From a virus: a DNA stretch of 64,000 nt. Shown here piece after piece: positions 32,276-62,771 of this stretch. Within the stretch, counting starts at the first letter, position 1, and every line of letters starts with the position of its first letter. Position numbers and translations under genes: made by a program. A model generated the notes under the pieces. It worked only from the letters and a program-made list of their open reading frames with translations, did no database searches and was not told where the DNA came from. The stretch lies in the IMG/VR virus record IMGVR_UViG_3300006341_000010, positions 1 through 64,000 of that record; one strand, written 5' to 3'.

Positions 32276-32340
32276 GGATTATTTTAAATAAATCACTAAG
32301 AACTGTTATATAGATCTCTTACTCCCTGTTTATTACCCTT

Positions 32341-38669: not shown

Positions 38670-38670
38670 T

Positions 38671-44373: not shown

Positions 44374-44399
44374 CCTTTAAAGAGGCGGAGGATAGTCCC

Positions 44400-45929
44400 A
44401 TTTGTGGTTTAGTAGGTGTAGCTGGTAACTTAATCCAGCGTGATGTAACTTTGTTTGGTCAGATGCTTTTAGCAGATGTGTTCCGTGGTAAACATGCAAC
44501 AGGTGTAATGCGAGTAGCCCATAATGGTCAGGCAATGTCTGTTCAACATGCCAAGTTAGCTATGTCATCAAAGTATTTCTTAGACTTACCTGTGTATGAT
44601 TTAATCACTGGCATTTCTCAATCATTAACAATCCTTGCAGGTCATAACCGCCATGCAACTAAAGGTGCATCAGACAATCATAAGTTTGCTCACCCATTTA
44701 AGCATGGTCACATTACCTTAATGCACAATGGTTCTTTAACTTCTCACTACAACCTAACACGTGGTACTAGTGAAACATTTACAGTAGACAGTGAAGCTAT
44801 TTGTTTTGCAATGTCTCGTGGTGAAGCACATGAAGTTATCCCTCAGCTTAACGGTGCCTTTGCTTTAGTGTGGGTTGATGAAGAAAAACAAACCCTTAAC
44901 TTCGTAAGAAACTCAGAGCGCCCACTCCACCTAGCATTTGATGAACGCTTAGGTAAGATCTACTGGGCATCAGAAAAAGATATGCTTAAGTGGTTACTTG
45001 ATCGTGACATGACGATGGCATCAGGTGGTTTCCGTTATGATCGTACAGAAGAACTGCCGGTGGGTGAGATCTGGTCTTTCCCAATCAACCAAAATTCTGT
45101 AGATCTTAAGGGCTGCGAGGTGACCTCAGTGGAAGTCTCTAAGCCCTTTACGTACACTGGCTATGGCAATTACGTCGGGGGTACTAACACAAAAAAAAGT
45201 CAGGGCGCAAACAACGCAAGCGCCAGCGCAAACAAGACAAGCGTCACCACAGGAAACTCAAACACCGGTAGTGTTAACAAAACTACTGGGACTAGCACTA
45301 CTGGTAACAGCAGTACTGGAATCCCTTGCCATGCAGCAGTGGATAACAGCGTTGGTACTGAGTACTTGCTTACTCCTAGTCTGGAAACGACTCTGAAAGC
45401 TTCATCTTCTAAGGTGTTAGACCATCTAGGTCGTCAGCAGATTGGTGTTCGCTCTTACATTAATGCCGCTGACCAGCAAGCAACTGAGTTAGATAAGCGA
45501 ATCCCTTTCTTCATCAAGAGCTTTGCTGTATATCCATCATCTGTTAACAAAGAACCTGAGAAAATATTGGGTTGTTTGAAAGGGAAGATGGTTGAGTATC
45601 CTTTCTCTGATATTATTATCCATGCTTGTACTAAGATGAAGTTTGATGAGTTGGTAGCTGAAGGTAACTCTATTGGTAGCTCTTACATTCAAGGCATCAA
45701 AGCTGAAGATACAGCTAAGCAGTTAGGTAAGTTGTCTGACTCACAAGCTAAGCTATTGTTTGATGTTGTCCTACGTGGTGATACTATTAAGCAGGTAGAA
45801 GAAGTAACTAACTACTTGTTTGATATGAATGAGATCCCTTCTTCATGGAAAGTATCTCAAGAACCTGAGGTCGTTAAGGGCATTGAGTTAGTAGTTGAGC
45901 AAGAGAAAGAACTAGCTCAAAAGAAGTAA
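44400..45929 (+). CDS. Class II glutamine amidotransferase with AUU start codon
   Basis: The protein begins (M)CGLVGVAGNLIQRDVTLFGQ: Cys2 is the N-terminal nucleophile of Ntn amidotransferases and must follow the initiator directly. That codon is ATT at 44400, with GGAGG (44387-44391) 8 bases upstream; the next possible start (44451) would delete Cys2. GHNRHATKGASDN and LMHNGSLTSH are further glutaminase motifs. A Thr/Ser/Asn-rich linker (about 250-310) leads to a C-terminal domain of unknown type (about 310-509). Likely supplies ammonia or transfers an amide for the ligases. Confidence 0.85.
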   Translation: MCGLVGVAGNLIQRDVTLFGQMLLADVFRGKHATGVMRVAHNGQAMSVQHAKLAMSSKYFLDLPVYDLITGISQSLTILAGHNRHATKGASDNHKFAHPFKHGHITLMHNGSLTSHYNLTRGTSETFTVDSEAICFAMSRGEAHEVIPQLNGAFALVWVDEEKQTLNFVRNSERPLHLAFDERLGKIYWASEKDMLKWLLDRDMTMASGGFRYDRTEELPVGEIWSFPINQNSVDLKGCEVTSVEVSKPFTYTGYGNYVGGTNTKKSQGANNASASANKTSVTTGNSNTGSVNKTTGTSTTGNSSTGIPCHAAVDNSVGTEYLLTPSLETTLKASSSKVLDHLGRQQIGVRSYINAADQQATELDKRIPFFIKSFAVYPSSVNKEPEKILGCLKGKMVEYPFSDIIIHACTKMKFDELVAEGNSIGSSYIQGIKAEDTAKQLGKLSDSQAKLLFDVVLRGDTIKQVEEVTNYLFDMNEIPSSWKVSQEPEVVKGIELVVEQEKELAQKK

Positions 45930-45934
45930 TAACG

Positions 45935-46083
45935 ATGGGGTATACTGTTGCGAGTGTGATGCACCATTCACCCGTGAAGATGCCCTGTCGTTTGGTATGT
46001 ACCTAGACGGAGATAAGAAAGAATTTATCTGTGACGTCTGTGTATTCTATGAAAAGAATCCTGAGATGGAGAAAAAATTATGA
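45935..46083 (+). CDS. Zinc-ribbon protein, start unresolved (possible frame disruption)
   Basis: The frame from 45943 reads YCCECDAPFTREDALSFGMY... FICDVCVFYEKNPEMEKKL with two CxxC knuckles, and its stop overlaps the next ATG as ATGA, typical of a real gene. No ATG, GTG, TTG or ATT lies in this frame before the first CxxC. ATG at 45935 is one base out of frame: ATGGGG followed by TATAC would be in frame with one extra G. Either an assembly homopolymer error, programmed frameshifting, or an unusual start. Role: probably binds zinc within the ligase operon. Confidence 0.55.
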
Positions 46084-46904
46084 GTACTATCATAGTAGAT
46101 GGTGTAGCAGTTGACTTAACTGTTGGGTGTGATCCTGAGCTGTTCGTAAAGGACGAGCAGGGTCTTGTTTCAGCACATGGTATGGTTGAAGGAACTAAAG
46201 AAGCTCCTAGTCCAGTAGAGAAAGGGGCTATCCAAGTTGACGGAATGGCCTTGGAGTTCAACATCAACCCAGCTGAAAGCCGTGAGGTGTTTATCGTTAA
46301 TACGATGTCTGTCATGCAAGACTTAGTAAAGAAAATTCCTCAGGGTCATACCCTAGTAGTAGCCCCAACTGCTAACTTTGGTAAAGCTTTAATTGACCAG
46401 CAGCCTGATGAAGCTAAAGAGCTAGGTTGCTCTGCTGATTACAATGCATACATGCAAGGTGCAGCTAACCCTAAGCCCAACGGCGACGTTGATTTCCGTA
46501 CGGCGGGTGGTCATATCCATGTGGGCTTCACTGAGAACGCTCACTCATCAGATCAGGAACACCAAGCTATCTGTCAAGAGATCATTAAGATGATGGACTT
46601 AATGCTCGGTGTTCCTTCAGTCCTTTTAGATGACGACAAGAAACGTCGTAGTCTTTACGGTGCTGCTGGTGCTTACCGCTCTAAGCCTTATGGTGTAGAG
46701 TATCGTTCGCTTAGTAACTTCTGGTTAAAGAGCAAGGAGTACATTGGTTGGGTCTATGACCAGACTGAAGTTACTATCAAGAAAGTCTTGGAAGGTTTAG
46801 ATGTTTCGGAAGATGCTGCTAAAATCCAAAGAGTTATTAACAGCTCTGATAAACAAGGAGCTAAAGAACTCATTCGTAAATACAACATTCAGTTACCAGT
46901 TTAG
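46080..46904 (+). CDS. phiEco32-like COOH-NH2 ligase, type 2 (glutamine synthetase-like fold)
   Basis: 274 residues. Family signatures: VGCDPELFVKDEQG near the N-terminus (metal/ATP-binding Glu), AIQVDGMALEFNINPA, RTAGGHIHVGF (His-x-His metal site) and YRSKPYGVEYRSLSNFWL (Arg/Glu site). This family forms amide bonds between carboxylates and amines using ATP. Start overlaps the zinc-ribbon stop. Product and substrate are unknown; probably a peptide or cell-wall modification. Confidence 0.85.
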   Translation: MSTIIVDGVAVDLTVGCDPELFVKDEQGLVSAHGMVEGTKEAPSPVEKGAIQVDGMALEFNINPAESREVFIVNTMSVMQDLVKKIPQGHTLVVAPTANFGKALIDQQPDEAKELGCSADYNAYMQGAANPKPNGDVDFRTAGGHIHVGFTENAHSSDQEHQAICQEIIKMMDLMLGVPSVLLDDDKKRRSLYGAAGAYRSKPYGVEYRSLSNFWLKSKEYIGWVYDQTEVTIKKVLEGLDVSEDAAKIQRVINSSDKQGAKELIRKYNIQLPV

Positions 46905-46914
46905 GAGGAAGATA

Positions 46915-47556
46915 ATGCCTGATATTAATATTAGTTCACGCTACCGTGGTTCAGGTGACATCTCTATGCGTCACAATGATACCTATGTAGGTGTAGTACA
47001 ACGTGATGGTTCGGTTACTCCTTATCGTTGTCATGGTGCTAGTAGCTCAGATAGTATCTCTATCTCTAAGGTCCAAGGGTTCCAAGGGGATAGTGATATG
47101 AACATCGGACTGAATGATGATCGCTTGTTACTTGATCGTCCTCAGTGTGGTTATGCTACCCTAAGGAATGTTGATGGTGATAAGACAGCAGTGTACTTCT
47201 GTACTCGTGCCCTTCGCCAGTACAAACGTTCTTTAGTTTACTCACACCTACATCGTACCCCTGCTGGTAGTGGCCGAGGGGTGGACTATAGTGACCGTGG
47301 GAACTTAGGGGCTGCCTTGTTTACATTCTTCAATGATGTATATTCTTCTGTTGAGAATGCAGTGAATGAACTCAAAGACACTGACGCTGTTTCAATAGCG
47401 ATTGGTAGTAAGTTTGCCTTAGCTAAGCATGAAGATAAAGGTATTGTCCTTTACTACAAGCGAGCAATAGTAGGTTGGTATGATCTTGAAGAAGAACAAG
47501 TCAAGTTAGTTAGTAGTTATCAACATCTTCAAGAACAATTAGAGGAGATCTCTTGA
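46915..47556 (+). CDS. Ligase-operon protein of unknown function, 213 aa
   Basis: Start set at ATG 46915 behind AGGAGGAAG; the long in-frame extension upstream overlaps the ligase gene and lacks a site. MPDINISSRYRGSGDISMRH... and YVGVVQRDGSVTPYRCHGAS form strands, then a helical C-terminus. No recognised family. Encoded between the two amidoligases, overlapping the second by one base (TGATG), so probably a partner or acceptor protein. Confidence 0.6.
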   Translation: MPDINISSRYRGSGDISMRHNDTYVGVVQRDGSVTPYRCHGASSSDSISISKVQGFQGDSDMNIGLNDDRLLLDRPQCGYATLRNVDGDKTAVYFCTRALRQYKRSLVYSHLHRTPAGSGRGVDYSDRGNLGAALFTFFNDVYSSVENAVNELKDTDAVSIAIGSKFALAKHEDKGIVLYYKRAIVGWYDLEEEQVKLVSSYQHLQEQLEEIS

Positions 47557-48458
47557 TGTTAGTCAGTGAAATTATTGGACGTAGTTCAGGTGGTTTAGCA
47601 GGTGAGTTGGGCTTAATGGTATCAGGTACTAAGGTAGGGGTAGAGATTGAGATCCAAACAAACTCTAGCTCCCATCCAGTGGATCGCTCAGAGTATTGGC
47701 GACCAGTATCTGAGGGTTCAGTACAGGGCTTTGAGATTGTTCTACGTGAACCTCAAGGCGGTACTGATTTAGTATCAGCTCTTGAGGAAGCTGAATCATT
47801 GGTTGATAGAATGGGTGGGAATGAGAAGTTCCCTGAGATGACTTCAGTCCATGTCCATGTTGATGTCCGTGACATGACAGAGATCCAGTTGTTTAACTTC
47901 CTCACATTAGCAATCATGTTCGAGCCTGTGTTATACAATTATGTAGAACCACATCGAAACAAGAACCACTTCTGTTTGCCAATGTCTGATGCTGATGATG
48001 TACTTGGTCGCTTGTATCGTTTGGTATCTCGCTACCGTCAGCATGGTAACATCAACCGTGATCAGTTACGATCTCTATTCTCACCAGATGAAGTTAAGTA
48101 TGCAGGTATTAACTTAAGTTCCATCCCGCACTACGGTTCCCTTGAGTTCCGAATGCACCATGGTACTGCAAGTTCTACCGCGTTGATCCGATGGATTAAT
48201 GTCCTGTTAAAGATGCATCAGTATGCTATGGAACCTAACCGTTCCCCTAATAACATCCTTGATACTAAGATTGAGGTTGGGATTGAAACAATATTCCAAC
48301 AAGTCCTTGGCCAATACTCAGGTGTGTTATCATACGAAGGCGTTGACGATGATATATTAGATGGGATCAGGAATGCACAGGACTTCGTTGCACTGTTCGC
48401 TCAGCCTGCGGGACGTAATGTCCTACAGGATATCCCTAATCAAACCCTAGGAGGATAA
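47556..48458 (+). CDS. Amidoligase (COOH-NH2 ligase, type 1-like)
   Basis: 300 residues, start ATG 47556 with AGAGGAG upstream. GVEIEIQTNSS is the first acidic motif of the amidoligase family, SVHVHVDVRDMTEIQLFNF the His-rich motif, and AGINLSSIPHYGSLEFRMHHGT the Glu/Arg/His motif, matching a glutamine-synthetase-like active site. Second ligase of this operon; two different types side by side suggest two sequential amide bonds. Confidence 0.85.
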   Translation: MLVSEIIGRSSGGLAGELGLMVSGTKVGVEIEIQTNSSSHPVDRSEYWRPVSEGSVQGFEIVLREPQGGTDLVSALEEAESLVDRMGGNEKFPEMTSVHVHVDVRDMTEIQLFNFLTLAIMFEPVLYNYVEPHRNKNHFCLPMSDADDVLGRLYRLVSRYRQHGNINRDQLRSLFSPDEVKYAGINLSSIPHYGSLEFRMHHGTASSTALIRWINVLLKMHQYAMEPNRSPNNILDTKIEVGIETIFQQVLGQYSGVLSYEGVDDDILDGIRNAQDFVALFAQPAGRNVLQDIPNQTLGG

Positions 48459-48459
48459 T

Positions 48460-50310
48460 ATGTCTAGGATTTTAATCATGGCACCTCGGGTTTCTGATGG
48501 TGCAAGGGCTTTAGCTGTAAGCTTATCTGAACTTGATGGTGTAGTAGCTCGTTATCGTCGCTTGGACCGAAGGGGTGTAGGCCGTTACAGTAATGTCAAC
48601 CTAGCTATCAACTGGGGCTGTGGGAATGGGGGTGAACCTGTAACCCCTTCTCAGTTCAATGCATTTGGTAGTCATCTGCAAGTGTTAAACCCAAGGACAT
48701 GGCGAGCTACTAATAAGCTTATGGCTTTCGAAACTATTAGGCGTTGGAATAGAGACCACTCTAATGATGAACAAATTAACATCCCTGAGTTTTGTACTAG
48801 CTTAGGGGGGGCTCGTGAATGGGCAGGGAATGGTGGTGTATTCTGTAGGACTCAGTTACGTGGTCACTCAGGAACAGACATTGTAGTTGCCCGTCATCCT
48901 CGTGATATAGTCGAAGCTCCCTTATACACCAAGCTAGTCAACAAGCGACATGAGTTCCGATTACATGTAGCAGGTGGTCAAGTTATTGATGGTGTAAGGA
49001 AGGCCTTTAGACAAGATGTCCCTGAAAGCCAACGGAACTATGATGTCAGGAACCATGCAGCAGGTTCAGTATTCATCCGTTCAGGTCGTTCATTGTCTTC
49101 CTTACAGATGGATCCTGTAGCTCAAGCAATGGCAGTCAATGCCTGTAGGGCTTTAGGTTTAGACTTCGGTGCAGTTGATATGATGACTGACCAAGAGGGT
49201 AACTTCTATATCCTCGAAGTCAATACGGCTCCGGGTCTTGAGGCTACTACCTTAGCTCGTTACACTGATGCATTCCATAAGATCTCCCGTGGTGAACGCG
49301 TTCTACGTTGGCAAGATCTTCCACTTAACCCTAACGCAACAACTGAAACACAAACTCAAACTCAAGAAACTAATAGTCAGGAGACTACTATGCCAGCACT
49401 AACTCTATCAATCCAAACATTACGTAATCACCGTGAAGCACGTCAGGCTCTAGAGGGTCAGACAGTTACACCTACTAATGAATTCCGTGGTTCTACTTTA
49501 ACAGCAGGTCGAGCTTATGAAGTCCGCCACTGTACTGTAGGTGACAACGGTCAGGTACGTTTGACTGTCCATAACGATCAAGGACGTGCCCAACGTTACA
49601 CTTTGAACACCAATAACTTCCGATTAGGTGGTCAATCAGCAGCCCCTCAGCTGCCTGAAGCTCAGGCTAACAACGAAGTAGATACATCACTACCTGTTGA
49701 TTCACCTTTACGTTGTGTACGTTTACAGGATGGCAGTCAGGTAAACGTAGGTGGTCAGGCTCAGTTCAATCTAAGCAATAGCCGATTCCTAAGCCAAGAT
49801 ACCCCATACACTGTTGCTGAGATCCGAGTTGGTTCTGAGACTGGTACTGCATTCTTAGGTATTAATGTTGAAGGTCGAGTCCGTCGCTGGCGTTTAGATT
49901 CTTTCTCTAATGGTGAGCGTGTAGCAGCAACAGCTCAAGCTACTACCTCTAACTCTAGTAGTCAGAATCGACCTAGTGAATCCCTTCAGACCTCAACAGG
50001 ACAACGAGTTGAAGTGGGTACGCTAGTACGAGTTAATAGCAGAAACGGTAACCACGGTATCCGAGTAGGTACTTCAGGTACTGTTCGATCTATTAATGTG
50101 AGCAATGGTACTTTAGTGATTGAAGGTCAGACTCGTGCTATCAATGTACGTCGAGTTGAAGTAGTTACTCCTGAGCAGGTTCAGCAAGAGAACCAAATCC
50201 GTGAGCAACAAAACAATACAGTGAGTGTTTCATTTGCTGGTACGAACTACCGAATCCGTAGTCGTGACCAACAACAAGTACAAACATTACTTAACCAATT
50301 AACTGTGTAA
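48460..50310 (+). CDS. ATP-grasp ligase with beta-rich C-terminal extension
   Basis: 616 residues, AGGAGG site. Residues 1-290 are an ATP-grasp enzyme: LRGHSGTDIVVA (nucleotide loop), LYTKLVNKRHEFRLHVAGGQ and YILEVNTAPGLEATTLARYT (Mg-binding E-x-N). A Thr/Gln linker (about 292-310) leads to three beta-rich modules (about 315-390, 410-490, 505-570) of SH3/KOW-like composition. In-frame ATG at 49390 with AGGAG six bases upstream could give the C-terminal half alone. The enzyme would activate a carboxylate as acyl-phosphate for peptide-type ligation. Confidence 0.85.
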   Translation: MSRILIMAPRVSDGARALAVSLSELDGVVARYRRLDRRGVGRYSNVNLAINWGCGNGGEPVTPSQFNAFGSHLQVLNPRTWRATNKLMAFETIRRWNRDHSNDEQINIPEFCTSLGGAREWAGNGGVFCRTQLRGHSGTDIVVARHPRDIVEAPLYTKLVNKRHEFRLHVAGGQVIDGVRKAFRQDVPESQRNYDVRNHAAGSVFIRSGRSLSSLQMDPVAQAMAVNACRALGLDFGAVDMMTDQEGNFYILEVNTAPGLEATTLARYTDAFHKISRGERVLRWQDLPLNPNATTETQTQTQETNSQETTMPALTLSIQTLRNHREARQALEGQTVTPTNEFRGSTLTAGRAYEVRHCTVGDNGQVRLTVHNDQGRAQRYTLNTNNFRLGGQSAAPQLPEAQANNEVDTSLPVDSPLRCVRLQDGSQVNVGGQAQFNLSNSRFLSQDTPYTVAEIRVGSETGTAFLGINVEGRVRRWRLDSFSNGERVAATAQATTSNSSSQNRPSESLQTSTGQRVEVGTLVRVNSRNGNHGIRVGTSGTVRSINVSNGTLVIEGQTRAINVRRVEVVTPEQVQQENQIREQQNNTVSVSFAGTNYRIRSRDQQQVQTLLNQLTV

Positions 50311-50325
50311 TAACTAGGAGGTAAT

Positions 50326-50562
50326 ATTAATTACAACTTCTCAAATCTATCCTTGAAACAGATAGTAGGGTTGTTATGGGCAGACCAGAACCTGAGAGAC
50401 TTTGGTGATCGTCATAGATTACTAACCTCTCAGGAAAGGAATAGCTGCTTTGCAATCCTAGGGAATCTTTCCGATGAAGAACTTGAAAGACTTCAAGGTG
50501 AGACCCCGTACTTCACATTGCTTGATTTACATCAGGCAAACCTAGACAACGTTACACTTTAA
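50326..50562 (+). CDS. Small protein with probable AUU start, 78 aa
   Basis: AGGAGG (50316-50321) stands 4 bases before ATT 50326, giving (M)NYNFSNLSLKQIVGLLWADQ... to DNVTL. A TTG at 50353 is the first ordinary codon but has no site and removes the amphipathic N-terminus. Helical protein with SDEELERLQGETPYFTLLDL; no family recognised. Between the ligase operon and SSB. Confidence 0.5.
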   Translation: MNYNFSNLSLKQIVGLLWADQNLRDFGDRHRLLTSQERNSCFAILGNLSDEELERLQGETPYFTLLDLHQANLDNVTL

Positions 50563-50603
50563 TTAATCTTTATTCTTTAATAATATAGGAGAACTATACA
50601 CAC

Positions 50604-51056
50604 ATGGCAAAGACAATCAAACAACGCGGTTCAGTTTTATTCTCAGCAATTGCAGACTTCGCTAAATTCAATAATCAATCAACAGGTAAGTATGAATTAG
50701 TACTTACATTGAATGACGATCAGCGAGCAGATGCAGAGAGTAATGGTGTAGGAATCAACGTTAAAGATTATCAAGGTCAAGAACAAGCAACTGCTAAGTT
50801 TAAATCTAAGTTCAAGCTAGAGAAAGGCATGGTAGTTGATCGCTTTAAGAATCCTTATGTGGATGCTGAAGGTAACATCAAGGAAATCCCTCGTGGTTCT
50901 GAAGTTGTTGTGTTCGCTACATCTAAGCCATACTCATTCGCTGGTAAGACAGGGGTTACAAACTACCTGAATGCTATCCAGATTATTGAGGAAGCTAACT
51001 CTATTGACTTCGAAGATTTCTCTGAGGAGTTAGAGGTGCAAGACGTTGAGTTCTAA
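50604..51056 (+). CDS. Single-stranded DNA-binding protein, T7 gp2.5-like
   Basis: 150 residues: an OB-fold-like beta-rich body (TGKYELVLTLNDDQRADAES, ATAKFKSKFKLEKGMVV) and an acidic C-terminal tail EDFSEELEVQDVEF ending in Phe, the hallmark of T7 gp2.5-type SSBs whose tail docks on polymerase and helicase. Encoded just before the primase-helicase, which also ends in an acidic tail with terminal Phe. Confidence 0.75.
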   Translation: MAKTIKQRGSVLFSAIADFAKFNNQSTGKYELVLTLNDDQRADAESNGVGINVKDYQGQEQATAKFKSKFKLEKGMVVDRFKNPYVDAEGNIKEIPRGSEVVVFATSKPYSFAGKTGVTNYLNAIQIIEEANSIDFEDFSEELEVQDVEF

Positions 51057-51249
51057 ACCAACGTATGAGGAGCTAGAGAGGGATCATGCGTTCCTCTTTG
51101 CTGCCTACAAGCAAACCAAACAAAAACTAGAGGAGCTTGAAGGAGAGTTCATTAAACTAGAGAGCTTGGTGGAGCATATCCATCAGGCCTCAGGCTCTTA
51201 CATTCAAGCTAAACTTGATAGTGTACCTGAAGCGGAGGATAAAGATTAG
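51046..51249 (+). CDS. Coiled-coil protein between SSB and helicase, 67 aa
   Basis: TTG start at 51046 (site AGAGG 8 bases upstream), overlapping the SSB gene by 11 bases. MSSKPTYEELERDHAFLFAA continues as a heptad helix. Its final codons include GCGGAGG, the ribosome-binding site of the helicase, and its stop overlaps the helicase ATT start. Function unknown. Confidence 0.55.
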   Translation: MSSKPTYEELERDHAFLFAAYKQTKQKLEELEGEFIKLESLVEHIHQASGSYIQAKLDSVPEAEDKD

Positions 51250-52957
51250 TAACTTTCTAGGATCAGGGTTCCCATGCCCTGATTGTGGTAGCTCTAACGC
51301 TGTGGCAGAATATCACAATGGTATGTTCTGTCATAAGTGTCAGAGTAAATTCCCTAGCAAGGAAAAGTATTTCCAAGCTACTGGTGTAGCCCCTAAGCAC
51401 CCTCAAGTAAACGATGGTGATCAGGCTATGCCTATGGACTCAGAGATTAAACAATCAACTCAGAGATTCAATATCCCTGAGGAGTTCGAGGGATCTAAAC
51501 AAAAGCATCGGGGTATTCAACCTGATGTATTGAACCGATATGGGATTAGGTTCAACGCAAGTGGTGACATGTTCACTATGATTAGGGACAAGGAAGGGAA
51601 TCCATCAGGCGCTCAGATCTGTAAGGGCCAAAGGGATGAGAAAGGTAGGAAGAAGATTACAGCTATGGGTGATGTCAAAGATAAGGCTCTTATCGGACAA
51701 CACTTAGCAGGTGGTAATGGTAATAGGTTAGTTATTACAGAGGGTTATCTAGATGCCTGTTCGGCTAGCATGATGCTAAATGGTAGATACCCTGTAGTCT
51801 CTGTCCTAAATGGTACAGGCTCAGCAGCTAAAGACTTTAAGAATAACATTGATTTCATTGAGCAGTATGATGAAGTTGTTATTTGTTTTGATAATGATAA
51901 ACCCGGTCGTGAAGCAGCTAAAGAATGTGCTAACTTAATTACTCCCGGCAAAGCTAAGATAGTACCATTGGCTAAGTACAAGGATGCCAATGACTTCCTA
52001 GTCCAAGGACAGGTAAAAGAATTTGTTAAGTATTTCTGGGAGGCTAAGCGTCATCAGCCTGACGGGATCATAAACCTAGCAGATATCTTTGACCAAGTGT
52101 TAGAGGAAGATGAGAAACCTTCAACCCCTTATCCTTGGGAAGGCCTGAATGAAATGCTAGATGGTATCAGGACATCTGAATTAGTTACAATAACGTCTGG
52201 TTCAGGTATGGGTAAGTCTAGTATCGTACGAGAATTAGAGTATCACCTATTAACTACAACAGAAGATAAGATAGGGATCTTGGCATTAGAAGAAACACCA
52301 GTAAGAACCACTCAAGGTATTATGGGTATCCATTGTAACTCTCAGTTGCATAGGAAAAAGTACAGGGATTTAGTTGACCCTAAGACCTATAAGGAAGCGT
52401 TCATGGCAACCGCAGGAACAGGTAGGTTAGTTGCTTATGATCACTTCGGTTCTACTTCTGGTGATAACTTGATTGCCCAGATCAGGTATATGATTAAAGG
52501 CTTAGGCTGTAAGCATGTAGTCTTAGATCACTTATCAATTGTAGTTAGTTCTCAAGAAGATGGTGGAGATGAGAGGAAGAACATCGACGCTATCATGACT
52601 AAGCTTAGGCAGCTAGTGCAAGAGACTGATGTCTCTATGTTCCTAGTGTCACACTTACGGAGAGCTTCAGGGGATAAGGGCCATGAGAATGGTGCTGAAG
52701 TTTCCCTTGCACAACTCCGAGGATCACAAGCTATTGCTCAGTTGAGTGATGCAGTGATTGCATTAGAGCGTGACCAGCAAGCAGAGAATGAGAAAGAAGC
52801 CAACCTTACCCGTCTCCGTGTACTTAAGTCTAGGTACACAGGACAGACAGGGATTGCAACCCACCTGTGGTTTGATCCTGATACTGGTAGGATGGTAGAG
52901 ATTGGAGATACTGAAAAGGTTAAGGAGTTTTTAGCACCAGATGTTGAGGAATTTTAA
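51245..52957 (+). CDS. Primase-helicase, T7 gp4-like, with AUU start codon
   Basis: Start set at ATT 51245: GGAGG lies 6 bases upstream and the protein then begins (M)SNFLGSGFPCPDCG as expected for gp4; the upstream TTG (51215) precedes the site. Zinc-binding domain CPDCG...CHKC (residues about 10-35); TOPRIM primase with VITEGYLDACS and VICFDNDKPGREAA; RecA-like helicase with Walker A SGSGMGKSS, LALEETPVRTTQG, HLRRASG and AQLRGSQAIAQLSD. The acidic tail ends APDVEEF. 570 residues, close to T7 gp4. Unwinds and primes at the fork. Confidence 0.92.
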   Translation: MSNFLGSGFPCPDCGSSNAVAEYHNGMFCHKCQSKFPSKEKYFQATGVAPKHPQVNDGDQAMPMDSEIKQSTQRFNIPEEFEGSKQKHRGIQPDVLNRYGIRFNASGDMFTMIRDKEGNPSGAQICKGQRDEKGRKKITAMGDVKDKALIGQHLAGGNGNRLVITEGYLDACSASMMLNGRYPVVSVLNGTGSAAKDFKNNIDFIEQYDEVVICFDNDKPGREAAKECANLITPGKAKIVPLAKYKDANDFLVQGQVKEFVKYFWEAKRHQPDGIINLADIFDQVLEEDEKPSTPYPWEGLNEMLDGIRTSELVTITSGSGMGKSSIVRELEYHLLTTTEDKIGILALEETPVRTTQGIMGIHCNSQLHRKKYRDLVDPKTYKEAFMATAGTGRLVAYDHFGSTSGDNLIAQIRYMIKGLGCKHVVLDHLSIVVSSQEDGGDERKNIDAIMTKLRQLVQETDVSMFLVSHLRRASGDKGHENGAEVSLAQLRGSQAIAQLSDAVIALERDQQAENEKEANLTRLRVLKSRYTGQTGIATHLWFDPDTGRMVEIGDTEKVKEFLAPDVEEF

Positions 52958-52959
52958 TA

Positions 52960-53127
52960 ATGGACGAAGATCGTTTAGAAGAATTGATAGCAAGAGCGAC
53001 GCAACTCAGAGAGCACCACCGGTCGATGGAGGAGTTCTTCACTAGTCAAGGCACTGAATATGTCACTTGGTCGTTCCCTGCTGAGGCAGATCTCCATGAA
53101 GAACTATGTGATGAGGACTTAATATGA
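52960..53127 (+). CDS. Tiny helical protein opening the gene ladder, 55 aa
   Basis: ATG at 52960 right after the helicase stop (TAATAATGG). MDEDRLEELIARATQLREHH... to CDEDLI. Acidic; ends in the EDLI motif shared by the following genes, and its stop overlaps the next ATG as ATGA. Unknown function. Confidence 0.6.
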   Translation: MDEDRLEELIARATQLREHHRSMEEFFTSQGTEYVTWSFPAEADLHEELCDEDLI

Positions 53128-53342
53128 GTAATGTAGTTAGGGTAATGTATTATGGTGCCTATTCCCGAGAGGTTGTAGGTGTTCCTTACTTTAATTCAGG
53201 CAGAGATCGGATTGATGAAGGAGACTGCGTGACTGAAGGGAAGGAAAACGATGGGTGGATTAACTTCCACCAAGACCCTGAGCACCTTTTAGGCAGTGGT
53301 ATACCTTGTAGATCTAATTGTCAATGGGAGTCTCTGATATGA
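53124..53342 (+). CDS. Ladder gene 1, 72 aa, QWExL family
   Basis: MSNVVRVMYYGAYSREVVGV... with DPEHLLGSGIPCRSNCQWESLI at the end. Paralogous to the next two genes by the shared pattern (M)SxVxxVMY, D-P/D-x-Y/H-L-L/I, and terminal QWExLI. ATGA overlap at both ends. Its terminal GGGAG codes for W-E and also serves as ribosome-binding site for the next gene. Confidence 0.7.
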   Translation: MSNVVRVMYYGAYSREVVGVPYFNSGRDRIDEGDCVTEGKENDGWINFHQDPEHLLGSGIPCRSNCQWESLI

Positions 53343-53551
53343 GTGATGTCAGGCGGGTAGTGTTCCGGGACGTGCAGATAGTAACGGAAGATTTTAATCA
53401 CAACATAGTTAATGGCCACACTATAAGACATGATGGTCTTACACTTTTCTGTGATTCTGATTGGGGTAGCTTAAATTATAGTGACGACCCTATGTATCTA
53501 ATAGGCTCTAGATCAACGAAGTGGGGCTGCCAGTGGGAGGACTTAGTATGA
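53339..53551 (+). CDS. Ladder gene 2, 70 aa, QWExL family
   Basis: Start at ATG 53339 (ATGA overlap). MSDVRRVVFRDVQIVTEDFN... DDPMYLIGSRSTKWGCQWEDLV. Clear sister of the genes on either side in both ends and in the DDPMYLIG segment. Function unknown. Confidence 0.7.
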   Translation: MSDVRRVVFRDVQIVTEDFNHNIVNGHTIRHDGLTLFCDSDWGSLNYSDDPMYLIGSRSTKWGCQWEDLV

Positions 53552-53781
53552 GCGATGTTATATCTATTATGTATAGGCAAACAAACTATATAGGTCCTGT
53601 TGATGAAGTGATCCATAGGAATAACGGTAGACATAAGGTAGAGGGATTCCATACATTACTAGCTTCAGGCGAGGAACGTCATGATGATGGTCAAATATTT
53701 TTCTACATGGATGATAGATACCTACTAAGAACAGGCACAATATGTCCTTATAGTGGAACTCAATGGGAGTATCTGATATGA
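53548..53781 (+). CDS. Ladder gene 3, 77 aa, QWExL family
   Basis: Start ATG 53548. MSDVISIMYRQTNYIGPVDE... MDDRYLLRTGTICPYSGTQWEYLI. Third clear paralogue; the YLLRTGT-CPYSGTQWEYL end aligns with HLLGSGIPCRSNCQWESL of gene 1. Confidence 0.7.
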   Translation: MSDVISIMYRQTNYIGPVDEVIHRNNGRHKVEGFHTLLASGEERHDDGQIFFYMDDRYLLRTGTICPYSGTQWEYLI

Positions 53782-53984
53782 AAGTCATGGCAGTTTATGA
53801 GAAACAAACTACTTACCTTGGGGATCAGATAGACCATTGGATGTCAGGGATCTTAGCTTACACCAATACTACCTTATCACAATTCACCTTGTTAGATTGT
53901 ATAGGCAATCATGCTATCTGTAGTAATAGTTTCTTAGTTGAGAGACCTGTTAACACAAACGTAATAGTGGAGGAATTAGTATGA
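53778..53984 (+). CDS. Ladder gene 4, 68 aa
   Basis: Start ATG 53778. MKVMAVYEKQTTYLGDQIDH... ends NVIVEELV. The start resembles ISIMYRQTNYIG of gene 3, suggesting the same family, but the QW is lost. ATGA overlaps at both ends. Confidence 0.65.
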   Translation: MKVMAVYEKQTTYLGDQIDHWMSGILAYTNTTLSQFTLLDCIGNHAICSNSFLVERPVNTNVIVEELV

Positions 53985-54172
53985 TTATTCAGGAAGATAA
54001 AGTAATTGCTGTTAAGAGACTTGATCAATCAATCCCCTCTAGGAGTTTCATTTATCATAGAGCTTATGATGTCCAACATTTTATAGCTAGTTGTGATGAA
54101 GATGATGAGACAAGGACATTGAAGAAAGACTCATCCCTTAACATGTTTAATTATGTGGAGGAATTGATATGA
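53981..54172 (+). CDS. Ladder gene 5, 63 aa
   Basis: MIIQEDKVIAVKRLDQSIPS... ends MFNYVEELI. GTGGAGGAATTGATATGA provides VEELI, the ribosome-binding site and the start of the next gene in one stretch. No domain recognised. Confidence 0.65.
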   Translation: MIIQEDKVIAVKRLDQSIPSRSFIYHRAYDVQHFIASCDEDDETRTLKKDSSLNMFNYVEELI

Positions 54173-54390
54173 CCATAGTATCAGTAGATGTAGAAGTAGA
54201 TCTAGATGACATTGACTTCGATGTTCTTAAGGACTATGTGTTAGAGGATCTAACGGACGATGAGATCTGTAGGGAAAGGGACTTGTATTCTGGGGAAGAC
54301 TATGAAAGTCTTGAAGAAGAACTTGAGGATCTTAGAGGTCTAATAGCAGAGCTTCGGAGAGATATGTCAAACATGGAGAGGTTAGAGTAA
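54169..54390 (+). CDS. Ladder gene 6, 73 aa, acidic coiled coil
   Basis: MTIVSVDVEVDLDDIDFDVL... then EEELEDLRGLIAELRRDMSN, a strongly acidic protein with a C-terminal coiled coil and no QWE motif. Unlike its neighbours in content but built into the same overlapping arrangement. Ends in MERLE with a TAATG junction. Confidence 0.65.
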   Translation: MTIVSVDVEVDLDDIDFDVLKDYVLEDLTDDEICRERDLYSGEDYESLEEELEDLRGLIAELRRDMSNMERLE

Positions 54391-54611
54391 TGAAGGTTTT
54401 CTTAGTTAAGTGGAGGGATAGATTTATAGTAGGGGAGGCGGAGAGAGATGTAGAAATATACAGTGAAACTTTCCAGTACTATAATATCCGAGGGGAAGGG
54501 GTAGACTATCAGACCGGTAGGATCTTAAACTCTAATGATGCCTTATGCTTCGACTATAGCTGGTTTGATAGATTCCCTGATCCCTTTTGGTATGCAGAGA
54601 GGTTGGTATGA
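54390..54611 (+). CDS. Ladder gene 7, 73 aa
   Basis: MKVFLVKWRDRFIVGEAERD... to FDRFPDPFWYAERLV. Start overlaps the previous stop by one base (TAATG). The ending GCAGAGAGGTTGGTATGA again carries the site for the next gene. The MKVFLV start and FPDP region echo genes 1-4. Confidence 0.65.
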   Translation: MKVFLVKWRDRFIVGEAERDVEIYSETFQYYNIRGEGVDYQTGRILNSNDALCFDYSWFDRFPDPFWYAERLV

Positions 54612-54835
54612 TATTAAGGAACGGTGATGTTGTTTCATTCTATGATGGTAATACTTATTATTACCCTAATAAACCCTTAGTCATAGAAGATTCTAGATCA
54701 GGAAACCCAGAGTTTTGCTCAGGGATTGCTGATGAAGATAACATAGCAGTTACTTCAGGCATGCTCAGGGATAGGGAAGAAGCCCAGAGGCGTTGGCTTA
54801 ATTCAAGTGATAGTATGATAGAGTATTTAATATGA
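54608..54835 (+). CDS. Ladder gene 8, 75 aa
   Basis: Start ATG 54608. MILRNGDVVSFYDGNTYYYP... DSMIEYLI. Its NGDVVSF start resembles DGDVIALIG in gene 9, so genes 8 and 9 form another pair. Function unknown. Confidence 0.65.
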   Translation: MILRNGDVVSFYDGNTYYYPNKPLVIEDSRSGNPEFCSGIADEDNIAVTSGMLRDREEAQRRWLNSSDSMIEYLI

Positions 54836-55029
54836 TAGTAGAAGATGGTGATGTGATAGCTCTTATAGGCTTTCATGGTAATAGGTTCTTTAGGGACTTA
54901 GAAGGACAAGCGTTTGAAGTAATTGGATATAACCTAGATTTATTTAGGTTCTCATTTCAAGGCCATAGTTACCCTTGGGCGCGAGATTCTAGAACGTGGC
55001 GAGTAGGAGGTTGTGAATTATTAATTTAG
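54832..55029 (+). CDS. Ladder gene 9, 65 aa
   Basis: MIVEDGDVIALIGFHGNRFF... WRVGGCELLI. Last of the ladder, 16 bases before DNA polymerase; the GGAGGTTGTGAATT and following AGAGGAGG lead into the polymerase start. Confidence 0.65.
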   Translation: MIVEDGDVIALIGFHGNRFFRDLEGQAFEVIGYNLDLFRFSFQGHSYPWARDSRTWRVGGCELLI

Positions 55030-55045
55030 AGGAGGTAATAGAAGC

Positions 55046-56926
55046 TTGCGGTTAAGCTTTGATATAGAAGGTAACGGTCTATTAGATCAAGTTACTACAA
55101 TCCACTGTATTGTTACAGAGGATATTGATACAGGTGAATGCAGAGAGTTTGAGCCTCATGAGATTGAAGAAGGTGTTAAGCATTTAATGCAAGCATCTAC
55201 TCTCATAGGACATAACATTCTTGGCTATGACTTACCTGCTATCAAGAAACTTTATGGTGAGGAGTTTAAAGGTGAGACCTTAGATACCTTAGTATTATCT
55301 AGGCTAGCTAGGCCTGACAGATCTTTACACCCTCAGTGCCCTGCGAAAGTATGGGATGAACACAACCAGAAAGATAAAGCTGTTGGCCCACATACCCTTA
55401 TGAACTTAGGGTACTACGCTGGTTTGAACAAAGGTGACTTTGGATCTGAAGCAGGGTGGGAGTATTACAGCAAAGAGATGTTAGAGTATTGTAAGCAGGA
55501 TGTATTAGTTACAACACGGATATATAACTATCTCAAGAAAGAACTTCAGGGCTTTAGTGATCAATGTATTTTACTTGAACACCAATTCAATTATAGAATC
55601 CAACAACAGATGGAACATGGTTGGTTCTTTGACATTGATAATGCTATGGAGTTAGAAGCAGAGTTAACTGAGAAGATGATGGAGCTAGAGGATGAGGTTC
55701 ATAAGACCTTTAAACCCATGGCTAAGTTCATTAGAGAGATACAACCAAGGGTGGTCAAGTCCGGTGGGTTATCTTCTGTTGGACTTAAGTTCCTAGAGAA
55801 CTACCAAAACGTAGTACCTATCCCTGATTGGATTGATGGGGAGTATGGTGTTGAATACATCAATGGTGAATTCTCAAGGATTGATTGGGTTGAATTTAAT
55901 CTAGGTTCAAGACAACAAATTGCTGATCAGTTACTCATGAGAGGATGGAAACCTAAAGAGTATACCGAGAATGGAAACATAATCGTAAACGAAAAGGTGT
56001 TGGGATCTATTGCTTCTAAGTTTGAGGAAGCTAAGTTGCTTGCTGATTACTTCATGATCTCAAAGAAAAAGTCTATGGTATCTTCATGGATTGAGAAATA
56101 CAATAGTGATACCGGTAGGATCCATGGGTATGTGAATACCTTAGGTGCTGCAACAAGACGTTGTACCCACTCCGGCCCTAACCTAGCACAAGTACCTGCG
56201 TCTAAGACAGACAAAGAGGGGCACTTGGTCTTTGGGTTTGAGGGAGGTTATGGCGCTGACTGTAGGAAGTTATTCACTGTACCTCGTGGTTATAAGCAGG
56301 TAGGTTGTGATGCTAGTGGCTTAGAGCTTAGATGCTTAGCCCACTATATGAACGACAAAGAATACACTGACTTAATCTTACACGGTGACATCCACTCATA
56401 TAACCAAAAGGCTGCTGGTTTACCTACCCGAAACAACGCAAAGACTTTCATCTATGGTTTCCTATATGGAGCTGGTGATGCTAAGATCGGAGAGATTGTT
56501 AATGGTACAGCTAAAGACGGTAAGAGATTAAAGACAGCGTTCCTTAATTCCCTGCCGAGTCTTAAGAAGCTGAAGGAAGGTGTAGCAGTAGCAGCAACAA
56601 GAGGTTGGTTGAAGTCAATTGATGGTAGTAAGATCAGGATTAAATCTGAACATGCTGCATTAAACTTCTTATTGCAATCAGCAGGTGCTATTGTTATGAA
56701 GCAATGGCTCGTGTTAGTCTGTGAACAGGCAGACAAAGAACAATTGGACTATCATCCCGTTGGTAATATCCATGATGAAGGCCAATTCGAAGTAGCAGAT
56801 AAGGATGTTAAAAGGTTCTGTGAGATCTGTGAATCATCTATGAATAAGGCTGGTGAAATGCTAGGCTTCCGTTGTCAGATTGATGGCGAGGCTATGGTAG
56901 GTTCATCGTGGGCAGCGACGCATTGA
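55046..56926 (+). CDS. DNA polymerase, family A (T7 gp5-like)
   Basis: 626 residues. Exonuclease domain: LSFDIEGNGLL (Exo I), IGHNILGYDLPAIKKL (Exo II), YCKQDVLVTTRIYNYL (Exo III). Polymerase: motif A GCDASGLELRCLAHYM, motif B RNNAKTFIYGFLYGAGDAKIG (Tyr at the nucleotide-selectivity position), motif C NIHDEGQFEV. Shorter than T7 gp5 (704). TTG start at 55046; AGAGGAGG ends 10 bases upstream, a long spacing, and no nearer in-frame start exists. The likely processivity factor is host thioredoxin or the protein at 1336, which is conjecture. Confidence 0.93.
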   Translation: MRLSFDIEGNGLLDQVTTIHCIVTEDIDTGECREFEPHEIEEGVKHLMQASTLIGHNILGYDLPAIKKLYGEEFKGETLDTLVLSRLARPDRSLHPQCPAKVWDEHNQKDKAVGPHTLMNLGYYAGLNKGDFGSEAGWEYYSKEMLEYCKQDVLVTTRIYNYLKKELQGFSDQCILLEHQFNYRIQQQMEHGWFFDIDNAMELEAELTEKMMELEDEVHKTFKPMAKFIREIQPRVVKSGGLSSVGLKFLENYQNVVPIPDWIDGEYGVEYINGEFSRIDWVEFNLGSRQQIADQLLMRGWKPKEYTENGNIIVNEKVLGSIASKFEEAKLLADYFMISKKKSMVSSWIEKYNSDTGRIHGYVNTLGAATRRCTHSGPNLAQVPASKTDKEGHLVFGFEGGYGADCRKLFTVPRGYKQVGCDASGLELRCLAHYMNDKEYTDLILHGDIHSYNQKAAGLPTRNNAKTFIYGFLYGAGDAKIGEIVNGTAKDGKRLKTAFLNSLPSLKKLKEGVAVAATRGWLKSIDGSKIRIKSEHAALNFLLQSAGAIVMKQWLVLVCEQADKEQLDYHPVGNIHDEGQFEVADKDVKRFCEICESSMNKAGEMLGFRCQIDGEAMVGSSWAATH

Positions 56927-57004
56927 TTTATATTTATTTACATTCTTGGTGTAACTTTCCCCAATTGATTAAGTCTAAATGGTTTTATAATTGATGGAGG
57001 TAAC

Positions 57005-57424
57005 ATGCAGAATAATCATTTAACAGGAATGGCTTCTGAGTATAAAGTAGCTGAGCATTATACTAGAGAAGGCTATGCCGTTTACTGGACTATGATGTCT
57101 CAATCTAGGGACGACATAGTAATAAGGAAAGGCAATGAGTTCACTAGGGTACAGGTGAAGACCGGTACTTGGGTTCAGTCTGGTAAGTATAAATATTTAC
57201 AATGTAGACTCAGGTCTGACAGAAGAAACGGAGGGACGTATGCCCCTTACACTCTTGAAGACTGTGACGTAGTAGTTATAGTTGAAGGGGATAGGCTATG
57301 GGAAATACCTGTAGCATGTGTTGCTGAAAGAACTAACATAACCTTGGATACTACTAACCCTACACCGAAAGCTAGTCAGAAAGATTACAACCCTGACGAC
57401 TGGCTAGTAACTAACGGGAGGTAA
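57005..57424 (+). CDS. PD-(D/E)XK homing-type endonuclease, copy A
   Basis: 139 residues. LTGMASEYKVAEHYTREGYAVY and SRDDIVIRKGNEFTRVQVKTGTW give the D...(E/Q)xK core (VQVKT) of the PDDEXK_5 group-I-intron-type nucleases. Located between DNA polymerase and exonuclease, common insertion sites for phage homing genes. It has a paralogue in tandem. Confidence 0.82.
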   Translation: MQNNHLTGMASEYKVAEHYTREGYAVYWTMMSQSRDDIVIRKGNEFTRVQVKTGTWVQSGKYKYLQCRLRSDRRNGGTYAPYTLEDCDVVVIVEGDRLWEIPVACVAERTNITLDTTNPTPKASQKDYNPDDWLVTNGR

Positions 57425-57426
57425 CA

Positions 57427-57816
57427 ATTAAAACTGGAACAACTAATGAGCTTAAGGCTATGAGTTACTATAGTTCTAAGGGGTATGATATTTATATCCC
57501 TGTAGACTCTAGTAGGATAGACTTCATTGCTCATAAGGACGAGGAACTATTAAAGATCCAAGTTAAAACTTGTTCAAAGAGGAGATACAAGGACACAGAA
57601 TATCGTGTTGCAATCTTATCTTCTCGTAGAGGTAACGGTAACGTTGGCAACTATAAGTTGTCTGAGATAGATGAGTGCTTTGTCGTTGATAAAGATGCAG
57701 CTTGGAGGATTCCATTCAAAGCTGTGTACCCTAACATCTCAGTAATGCTAGATTCAAATAGGAAAGAGTACAAGCCTAAGCATAATCTTCCAGTGGAAGA
57801 CTGGAGGGTGTACTAA
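57427..57816 (+). CDS. PD-(D/E)XK homing-type endonuclease, copy B, with AUU start
   Basis: Aligning with copy A (LTGMASEYKVAEHYTREGYAVY), the protein should begin (M)KTGTTNELKAMSYYSSKGYDIY, which starts at ATT 57427, four bases after GGGAGGT. Starting at the ATG at 57460 would cut the conserved first helix. Catalytic core SRIDFIAHKDEELLKIQVKT. Tandem duplication of copy A with strong divergence. Confidence 0.78.
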   Translation: MKTGTTNELKAMSYYSSKGYDIYIPVDSSRIDFIAHKDEELLKIQVKTCSKRRYKDTEYRVAILSSRRGNGNVGNYKLSEIDECFVVDKDAAWRIPFKAVYPNISVMLDSNRKEYKPKHNLPVEDWRVY

Positions 57817-58703
57817 TTCTTAGAGTAGCTATATTGGATGCAGATATCGCAGTGTATCATGTATCAATTTCATGTGAACGTGAATCAAGACTGGAGGTAG
57901 TCAAAGAGACTATGGACTTATACATCAAGAACTGGCTATCATGTGCTGGGGCTGATGAGTATGTAGGTTATATAACAGAGTCGAAAGCTAACTTCAGAAT
58001 ACAACGTGCTTCTACTTGGCCTTATAAGGGTCAAAGGAAGAAAGCTAAACCCAAATGGTACTTGGCGATGCGAGAGTATGTCCAAGAACAATGGGGGTTT
58101 CAGAATGTTATTGGGATTGAGGCCGATGATGCCTTGACTATAGCAGCTGAGAAACTTAAAGCTGAGGGTAAGGAGCCAGTGATTGTGACAGAGGATAAAG
58201 ATCTCTTACAATACCCTGCTCTCCATTACAACCCTAACAAATCACATAATGTGTTTAGGATCTCAGAGGCTGAGGGTCACTATAACCTATGGCATCAAGT
58301 CATAACAGGTGATAGGACTGATAACATTCCCGGTGTGTCACATGCCATTACCGAAACTAGGACAGGGACTTACAATAGATCTATCTCCGAGAGTGATTTA
58401 CTTCCCGAGGATAAGATTAAATTGTTTAAGAAATATCCTAGGCAAGAACAGTATGGTAAATCCAGTGCAGCTAAATACTTAGAACAATTTCCACCTGAGG
58501 AATATCCCCTCAGGGTCTGGGAGTTATATGTAGATAAGTATGAGGACTTAGAGGATGAAGGTTCCTATGGATATGGGGACTTAAGATTCCATGAGACCTT
58601 TGATTTAATCTACATGTTAGTCAAAGAACCTGAAGGGGTTGAGGTCTTGGTAGAACCTAAGAAACCTCCAGTCCCTGAGGGAATTAAATTTTTAGATTTT
58701 TAA
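57816..58703 (+). CDS. 5'-3' exonuclease (T7 gp6 / FEN-like), with AUU start
   Basis: Start ATT 57816 overlaps the previous stop (TAATT), with GGAGG (57803-57807) 8 bases upstream; it gives (M)LRVAILDADIAVYHVS, the required first strand and metal Asp. TTG at 57834 would remove the first strand. Further FEN motifs: GIEADDALTIAAEKL, VTEDKDLLQY and TGDRTDNIPG. Removes RNA primers and degrades host DNA in T7. About 295 residues. Confidence 0.88.
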   Translation: MLRVAILDADIAVYHVSISCERESRLEVVKETMDLYIKNWLSCAGADEYVGYITESKANFRIQRASTWPYKGQRKKAKPKWYLAMREYVQEQWGFQNVIGIEADDALTIAAEKLKAEGKEPVIVTEDKDLLQYPALHYNPNKSHNVFRISEAEGHYNLWHQVITGDRTDNIPGVSHAITETRTGTYNRSISESDLLPEDKIKLFKKYPRQEQYGKSSAAKYLEQFPPEEYPLRVWELYVDKYEDLEDEGSYGYGDLRFHETFDLIYMLVKEPEGVEVLVEPKKPPVPEGIKFLDF

Positions 58704-62560: not shown

Positions 62561-62771
62561 AGATTCTAAATCAATGATAAAGGTTACTTTTGATGATGGA
62601 TATAGTTCCTTGTTTTTCCATGATGAATATCTAGATGATGTCTCAGCTAAAGAAATAGCAGAGATTAGGGTGAGAGAGCTTCAACTTCTAAGTGATCGTA
62701 GTTTAGAGATAGATAAAGTTAAACACACTAATATAAAACCATTAGATAAACTCAAAGGAGAACAATCATAG
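62547..62771 (+). CDS. Hypothetical protein, 74 aa
   Basis: ATG 62547, AGGGGC upstream. MSVNKDSKSMIKVTFDDGYS... small alpha/beta protein with RELQLLSDRSLEIDKVKH. Its last codons contain AAAGGAG, the site for thyX. Confidence 0.55.
   Translation: MSVNKDSKSMIKVTFDDGYSSLFFHDEYLDDVSAKEIAEIRVRELQLLSDRSLEIDKVKHTNIKPLDKLKGEQS

What the first reader, a model, noticed from the sequence alone, without database searches (positions are those of the whole stretch)
44400..57816. Recurrent AUU start codons in a phage operon
Five genes appear to begin at ATT, each 4-8 bases after a GGAGG-type site: amidotransferase (44400), 78-aa protein (50326), primase-helicase (51245), second PDDEXK nuclease (57427) and exonuclease (57816). 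In four of them the ordinary alternative start would delete a conserved or catalytic N-terminal part, and two overlap the upstream stop as TAATT or ATTAG in place of TAATG. AUU initiation is very rare in bacteria (E. coli infC and pcnB are the textbook cases) and is sensed by IF3. Repeated use suggests an evolved regime, perhaps linking translation to IF3 activity.
Basis: partly seen in the sequence, partly recalled or inferred. Interest (0 to 1): 0.85.

Follow-up and report, generated by a model that had tools for sequence, protein, structure and literature searches.

The report
Phage genes starting at AUU/AUA/AUC
A small group of marine bacterial viruses starts many of its DNA-replication genes at the codons AUU, AUA or AUC instead of the normal AUG, each behind a strong ribosome-binding site; such starts are known from a few isolated bacterial genes, but I found no report of one virus lineage using them repeatedly, and standard gene finders miss or truncate these genes.

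Summary
All five ATT starts are present, each 4-8 nt after GGAGG, and thyX (62768) starts at ATA (or the adjacent ATC). The window is nearly all of a 66.4-kb marine podophage-like genome. Four relatives, including the isolate Pseudoalteromonas phage Slicky01, do the same: 29 curated starts in five phages (16 ATT, 9 ATA, 4 ATC). In 24 of 29 no ATG/GTG/TTG lies between the upstream in-frame stop and the AUH codon. The next conventional start is 3-117 codons inside the gene and, with two weak exceptions, has no Shine-Dalgarno match. An annotation-free test found such starts in 26/202 conserved ORFs of this clade against 2/700 in seven control groups. The 78-aa protein and the second PDDEXK nuclease use AUH in 5/5 phages, never AUG, which suggests selection. 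The anatomy (strong SD plus AUH) matches E. coli infC and S. aureus infC/cvfC1/ccpN, so deliberately weak, IF3-sensitive initiation of mainly replication genes is the best explanation. The IF3 step is inferred and untested. No phage IF3 or extra initiator tRNA was found. Verdict: real, clade-wide, a new variant of a known mechanism.

The parts
44387..44402 (+). GGAGG (44387-44391), 8-nt spacer, ATT start (44400) of class II glutamine amidotransferase
   Evidence: orthologs in L002, L020, L041, L124 and L003 have ATG TGT at exactly this position and Cys2 is invariant
44400..45929 (+). glutamine amidotransferase (GATase_6, phrog_4736); the nucleophile Cys must follow the initiator
   Evidence: Pfam PF13522 8.5e-16; phrog_4736 matched from profile position 2
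50317..50328 (+). GGAGG (50317-50321), 4-nt spacer, ATT start (50326) of 78-aa protein
   Evidence: in-frame stop 5 codons upstream, no conventional start between; orthologs ATC, ATC, ATA, ATA
50326..50562 (+). 78-aa conserved protein, function unknown, predicted four-helix (pLDDT 80); AUH start in 5/5 phages
   Evidence: no fold match
51234..51247 (+). GGAGG (51234-51238), 6-nt spacer, ATT start (51245) of primase-helicase, overlapping the upstream stop as ATTAG
   Evidence: orthologs ATT, ATA, ATA, ATG
51245..52957 (+). T7-type primase-helicase (Zn finger, Toprim, DnaB_C)
   Evidence: Pfam; invariant C11xxC14 of the alignment
55046..56926 (+). DNA polymerase A; TTG in this genome, but ATT/ATT/ATA/ATT in the four relatives
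57417..57429 (+). GGAGG (57417-57421), 5-nt spacer, ATT start (57427) of second PDDEXK nuclease
   Evidence: orthologs ATT, ATT, ATC, ATT; upstream paralog at 57005 has near-identical SD but ATG
57427..57816 (+). PDDEXK_5 nuclease; AUH start in 5/5 phages
   Evidence: Pfam PF11645 7.6e-10
57803..57818 (+). GGAGG (57803-57807), 8-nt spacer, ATT start (57816) of 5'-3' exonuclease, overlapping the upstream stop as TAATT
   Evidence: more distant phages L015-L018 have ATG at exactly this position
57816..58703 (+). 5'-3' exonuclease (phrog_107)
62757..62770 (+).
   Evidence: Slicky01 ortholog also ATA after AAGGAGA; next conventional start 30 codons (window) or 41 codons (Slicky01) inside
62768..63427 (+). 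flavin-dependent thymidylate synthase ThyX
   Evidence: Pfam PF02511 4.4e-39

Best explanation
The AUU, AUA and AUC codons are genuine translation starts read by the ordinary initiator fMet-tRNA, through A-U pairing at the first two positions and a mismatch at the third. A strong Shine-Dalgarno sequence holds the 30S subunit in place, while the weak codon makes commitment slow and dependent on initiation-factor proofreading, as at infC. In this phage clade the arrangement has been kept, mainly on replication and nucleotide-metabolism genes, as a way to keep output low and tunable with the IF3-to-ribosome ratio or the physiology of the infected cell. Shown here: the AUH positions are the starts by conservation, SD placement and lack of any alternative; the trait is clade-wide; two genes never carry AUG. 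Inferred: use of fMet, lowered output, IF3 dependence, and the benefit to the phage.
For: Orthologs alternate ATT/ATA/ATC/ATG/GTG/TTG at the same boundary. Amidotransferase ATT sits where five relatives have ATG, immediately before invariant catalytic Cys2. In 24/29 curated cases no conventional start is available upstream, and the next internal ones lie 3-117 codons in; 27/29 of these have SD runs of 4 nt or less, and the other two (44451 in the window and the polymerase of 3300032274_000049) have 5. Clade 26/202 against controls 2/700. First residue of the 78-aa family is AUH in 5/5 although its N-terminus varies in length. SDs are strong: runs of 5 nt or more in 28/29, up to a perfect 13 nt before an ATC. 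E. coli infC has the same layout, GGAGGAATAAGGT ATT AAA. In S. aureus, AUU/AUA starts behind extended SDs were mapped by Ribo-Ret and gave about 10% of the AUG reporter level, up to 30% for ccpN in rich medium (PMC13009471). No phage IF3 domain; the only tRNA found is Arg-CCT.
Against: No expression, proteomic or IF3 data. Only five genomes, one of them an isolate. Some single sites are ambiguous: window primase (TTG/GTG upstream), Slicky01 PDDEXK2 (in-frame ATG abutting the SD), Slicky01 78-aa protein (far-upstream ATG/TTG), two starts in 3300037081_000045 (GTG or ATG upstream), and Slicky01 exonuclease (TTG), which I did not count. Start choice drifts between phages for most genes, so drift compensated by strong SDs could explain all but the two always-AUH genes. 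The hits are concentrated on the early strand but the excess there is modest in the three complete-length genomes (12/92 early against 3/69 late ORFs).
Confidence: 0.7

Rival explanations
1. Neutral drift: AUH codons are real but merely tolerated. Strong SDs and coupled translation make the third base of the start nearly free, so ATG decays to ATH in a 40% G+C phage without regulatory benefit.
For: Most families switch between AUG, GUG, UUG and AUH among close relatives; G+C is 40-41%.
Against: The 78-aa gene and PDDEXK2 are AUH in 5/5 phages with third base T, A or C but never G, although ATG is the commonest start elsewhere in these genomes. Control phages with equally good SDs rarely show AUH (2/700).
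Confidence: 0.2
2. The phage changes start-codon fidelity of the infected cell, for example by an inhibitor of IF3 or a change to the 30S subunit or initiator tRNA, so that AUH becomes efficient after the first minutes and acts as a time switch for replication genes.
For: AUU, AUA and AUC are all used, as expected when IF3 discrimination is relaxed; the trait belongs to one phage clade and is not shared by Pseudoalteromonas phage RIO-1, so it is not simply a host trait.
Against: No IF3-like domain, no extra initiator tRNA, no candidate factor identified; no CTG starts stood out (CTH class 2 orphan ORFs), though relaxed fidelity would be expected to allow other near-cognates.
Confidence: 0.12
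3. The AUH codons are internal isoleucines; the genes are entered by another route, such as frameshifting from the upstream gene, an unannotated upstream start, or reinitiation at a downstream conventional codon.
For: Three of the six window cases abut or overlap the upstream stop; primase has TTG/GTG upstream; a few relatives have an in-frame ATG upstream.
Against: 24/29 have no conventional start upstream before an in-frame stop, in some cases directly adjacent; downstream starts would remove Cys2, the zinc finger, the FDIE motif or whole strands and, bar two 5-nt runs, have no SD; SD-to-AUH spacing is 3-9 nt throughout.
Confidence: 0.05
4. Sequencing or assembly error (ATG misread as ATH).
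For: Four of the five genomes are metagenome contigs.
Against: Same starts in independent contigs and in the isolate Slicky01; three different third bases; flanking protein divergence is normal.
Confidence: 0.01

Closest known systems
E. coli infC (AUU start, IF3 autorepression)
   Same: AUH start behind a GGAGG-type SD; here GGAGGAATAAGGT ATT AAA GGC, phage examples TAAGGAGGAAAT ATT AAA and GGGAGGTAACA ATT AAA
   Different: one host gene with a feedback loop; here many phage genes, no IF3 gene in the phage, IF3 dependence untested
S. aureus infC, cvfC1, ccpN and citZ AUA/AUU starts with extended SDs (PMC13009471)
   Same: extended SD plus AUU/AUA, conserved across species for ccpN, lowers initiation to about 10-30% of AUG
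   Different: four isolated chromosomal genes in a Gram-positive; here about five or more genes per phage genome, including AUC
Streptomyces sigR GUC start repressed by IF3 (PMC5472188)
   Same: rare start codon proposed as a regulatory device through IF3
   Different: GUC rather than AUH; a single regulatory gene
Vibrio phage CHOED / Aeromonas phages MQM1 and 1233 (nearest cultured outgroup)
   Same: homologous polymerase, primase and exonuclease
   Different: conventional starts (primase and polymerase), 1/146 orphan AUH call in the test
Salmonella phage f18SE, whose paper states that ten genes begin with AUU (PMC4599075)
   Same: the only literature claim of multiple AUU starts in a phage that I found
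   Different: 52 of the 53 deposited CDSs checked (the one crossing the record start was left out) start 45 ATG, 5 GTG, 2 TTG, so the statement is probably a slip

Membership tests
AUH-initiated, IF3-controlled genes (infC type) | AUU, AUA or AUC is the start codon | tested here: met
   conservation boundary, no alternative start in 24/29, SD placement
AUH-initiated, IF3-controlled genes (infC type) | strong or extended Shine-Dalgarno at normal spacing | tested here: met
   anti-SD runs of 5-13 nt in 28/29, spacing 3-9 nt
AUH-initiated, IF3-controlled genes (infC type) | non-AUG start conserved among orthologs | tested here: met
   5/5 for the 78-aa protein and PDDEXK2, 4/5 for polymerase and primase; drifting for others
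AUH-initiated, IF3-controlled genes (infC type) | expression falls with IF3 and rises when start is changed to AUG | not testable with these tools
   needs reporters or infection experiments
Phage-encoded initiation machinery | own IF3 or own initiator tRNA | tested here: not met
   PF00707 absent in the own genome; only tRNA-Arg(CCT) found in the window, Slicky01, G001 and 3300037081 records; a degenerate tRNA-like at 38670-38752 is not conserved
Termination-reinitiation at overlapping stop-start | start overlaps or abuts the upstream stop | tested here: not met
   only 3 of 6 window cases overlap; others lie 2, 15 and 26 nt after the stop

The most novel reading that the evidence does not exclude
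A phage lineage uses AUH start codons as a programmed translational regulon for its replication module and lowers the start-codon fidelity of infected cells by an unidentified factor, so that these genes switch on with infection.
Probability: 0.12. Interest if true: 0.92.

Novelty: new variant of a known kind. Interest (0 to 1): 0.72.

Why it matters
AUH initiation is treated as an oddity of infC, pcnB and a few other genes. Here a virus lineage puts it on polymerase, primase, exonuclease, nuclease and thymidylate synthase genes, several times per genome, so the question whether IF3-sensed starts can serve as a regulon becomes testable with a cultured phage (Slicky01). It also shows that gene finders limited to ATG/GTG/TTG give wrong N-termini: the Slicky01 record starts its polymerase 23 codons late, losing the FDIE exonuclease motif, and thyX 41 codons late.

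Tried and rejected
Initiator-tRNA idea: the tRNA-like stretch after tRNA-Arg (38670-38752) folds poorly, is not called by Rfam, and is absent next to tRNA-Arg in three relatives. Phage IF3: none. Host effect: Pseudoalteromonas phage RIO-1 uses ATG for amidotransferase and polymerase. BLAST-edge criterion for missing starts: too fuzzy, flagged 71/149 control ORFs, dropped in favour of the SD-anchored test. Decoy triplets: AAH gave 16 hits, but 12 of these ORFs also carry an AUH in the window and in-frame AAH neighbours are common there. Function of the always-AUH 78-aa protein: no Pfam or PHROG hit, confident small helical model, no fold match. More relatives: two further viral-contig scans and one genome scan returned only the same clade members or distant sequences.
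Full report
WHAT WAS CHECKED. The window is bases 1-64000 of a 66,406-base IMG/VR virus record with T7-like replication genes, a P22-type coat-protein module like that annotated in Slicky01, and one tRNA, Arg-CCT. The overlaps TAATT and ATTAG are real. A sixth case, thyX at ATA 62768 (or ATC 62765), was not in the finding.

WHY THESE ARE STARTS. In the glutamine amidotransferase the codon before the catalytic cysteine is ATT here and ATG in five relatives; Cys2-Gly3 are invariant, and the PHROG profile aligns from position 2. In class II amidotransferases this cysteine must become the N-terminal residue (established knowledge), so initiation elsewhere would give a dead enzyme. In the exonuclease, four more distant phages have ATG at the same position. 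The tandem PDDEXK paralogs have nearly the same SD (GGAGGTAAC), one with ATG (57005) and one with ATT (57427).

RELATIVES. Protein and DNA searches found four relatives: the isolate Pseudoalteromonas phage vB_PtuP_Slicky01 (OQ508958), and contigs 3300021197_001180 (64.8 kb), 3300032274_000049 (19.4 kb) and 3300037081_000045 (22.3 kb). Order below: window, Slicky01, 3300021197, 3300032274, 3300037081. 78-aa protein: ATT, ATC, ATC, ATA, ATA. PDDEXK2: ATT, ATT, ATT (or the ATA before it), ATC, ATT. Polymerase: TTG, ATT, ATT, ATA, ATT. Primase: ATT, ATA, ATG, ATT, ATA. Exonuclease: ATT, TTG (uncertain), GTG, ATT, ATA. ThyX: ATA in window and Slicky01. MazG-like: ATT in Slicky01 and 3300037081. SSB-like: ATT only in 3300037081. 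An endonuclease homologous to window 60142: ATA only in 3300037081. 3300021197 also has AUH on two late-strand genes, one with a perfect 13-nt anti-SD match (TAAGGAGGTGATC, then T, then ATC). Exonuclease ATA in 3300037081 and MazG ATT in Slicky01 were read from the alignments and are not among the 29 curated sites.

STATISTICS. For 29 curated AUH starts (16 ATT, 9 ATA, 4 ATC), 24 have no ATG, GTG or TTG between the upstream in-frame stop and the AUH codon. The next conventional codon lies 3-117 codons downstream with an anti-SD run of 4 nt or less in 27 of 29 and 5 nt in the other two. An annotation-free test over all ORFs conserved within a group asked for a >=6-nt anti-SD match 3-10 nt before AUH with no better than 4 nt before any ATG/GTG/TTG. 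It found 26 of 202 in this clade. The controls gave 1/146 (CHOED, MQM1, 1233), 0/37 (RIO-1, VpV262, ICP2), 0/63 (T7, MmP1), 1/343 (15 contigs with about 46% identical primase), 0/69, 0/22 and 0/20, that is 2/700; Fisher p about 1e-15. A few of the 26 are doubtful on inspection (for example Slicky01 11021, where ATG follows two codons later, and 3300032274 2829). Decoy triplet classes in the clade gave 0-6 except AAH (16), of which 12 share an ORF with an AUH hit. Among 34 orphan ORFs with a strong SD, 26 have AUH in the window against 5.1 expected. ORFs within a group are homologous, so these counts are not fully independent.

SELECTION OR DRIFT. The start codon drifts in most families, but the 78-aa gene and PDDEXK2 are AUH in all five phages, with third base T, A or C and never G, while the proteins have diverged to about 50% identity and the 78-aa N-terminus even changes length. 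Since ATG is the commonest start elsewhere, this suggests that the weak codon is maintained on these two genes. For the others compensated drift remains possible.

MECHANISM. E. coli infC reads GGAGGAATAAGGT ATT AAA GGC, and the phage sites have the same layout. In S. aureus, AUA (infC, ccpN, citZ) and AUU (cvfC1) starts with extended SDs were mapped by Ribo-Ret; AUH gave about 10% of the AUG reporter level in poor medium and up to 30% for ccpN in rich medium (PMC13009471). sigR in Streptomyces is repressed by IF3 through a GUC start (PMC5472188). I therefore infer that the phage genes are deliberately weak, IF3-sensitive starts held by strong SDs. Shown: position, conservation, SD context, clade restriction. 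Inferred: fMet initiation, low output, IF3 dependence. No phage IF3 and no candidate initiator tRNA were found, so a host-fidelity switch is possible but unsupported.

LITERATURE. Full-text searches found no phage with repeated AUH starts except a sentence on Salmonella phage f18SE (PMC4599075) that its own deposited annotation does not bear out. The library holds open-licence papers only, so an earlier report in a subscription journal cannot be excluded.

CONSEQUENCE FOR ANNOTATION. In the Slicky01 GenBank record the polymerase is annotated from a GTG 23 codons inside the gene (losing the FDIE exonuclease motif), thyX from an ATG 41 codons inside, and the primase from an ATG three codons inside.

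Noticed in passing
window 45900-46083; L031 near 13504; L020 near 20073; L041:3129-4946; L124 (RIO-1) amidotransferase C-terminus: A conserved zinc-ribbon ORF just after the amidotransferase stop has no start codon in the window, Slicky01 or 3300032274 and is out of frame with the amidotransferase (after an A-run in Slicky01), but is fused in frame in 3300037081 and RIO-1: candidate programmed frameshift.
   Followed up: partly
contig 3300032274_000049, about 2868-4952 (L023, L031): DNA polymerase gene is interrupted near residue 575 by an insert that carries a relative of the window's HNH_3 ORF (43954-44373): probable homing-endonuclease insertion.
   Followed up: no
G000 bases 1-415 and 65992-66406 (approximately): The record's ends repeat each other over 415 bases at 96.4% identity, so the record is probably near complete.
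   Followed up: partly
window 38593-38669; also Slicky01, G001 and 3300037081: tRNA-Arg(CCT), reading AGG, was found in the window and three of four relatives (not in the 19-kb fragment 3300032274); a degenerate tRNA-like stretch follows it only in the window.
   Followed up: yes
window 53124-55029: A run of tandem small ORFs (about 63-86 aa) just before the polymerase; perhaps a duplicated family of small early proteins.
   Followed up: no
window 32300-33000: Non-coding region rich in short direct repeats (such as ctacaagg and agactgatag) between the divergent early and late modules; possibly an origin or regulatory region.
   Followed up: no
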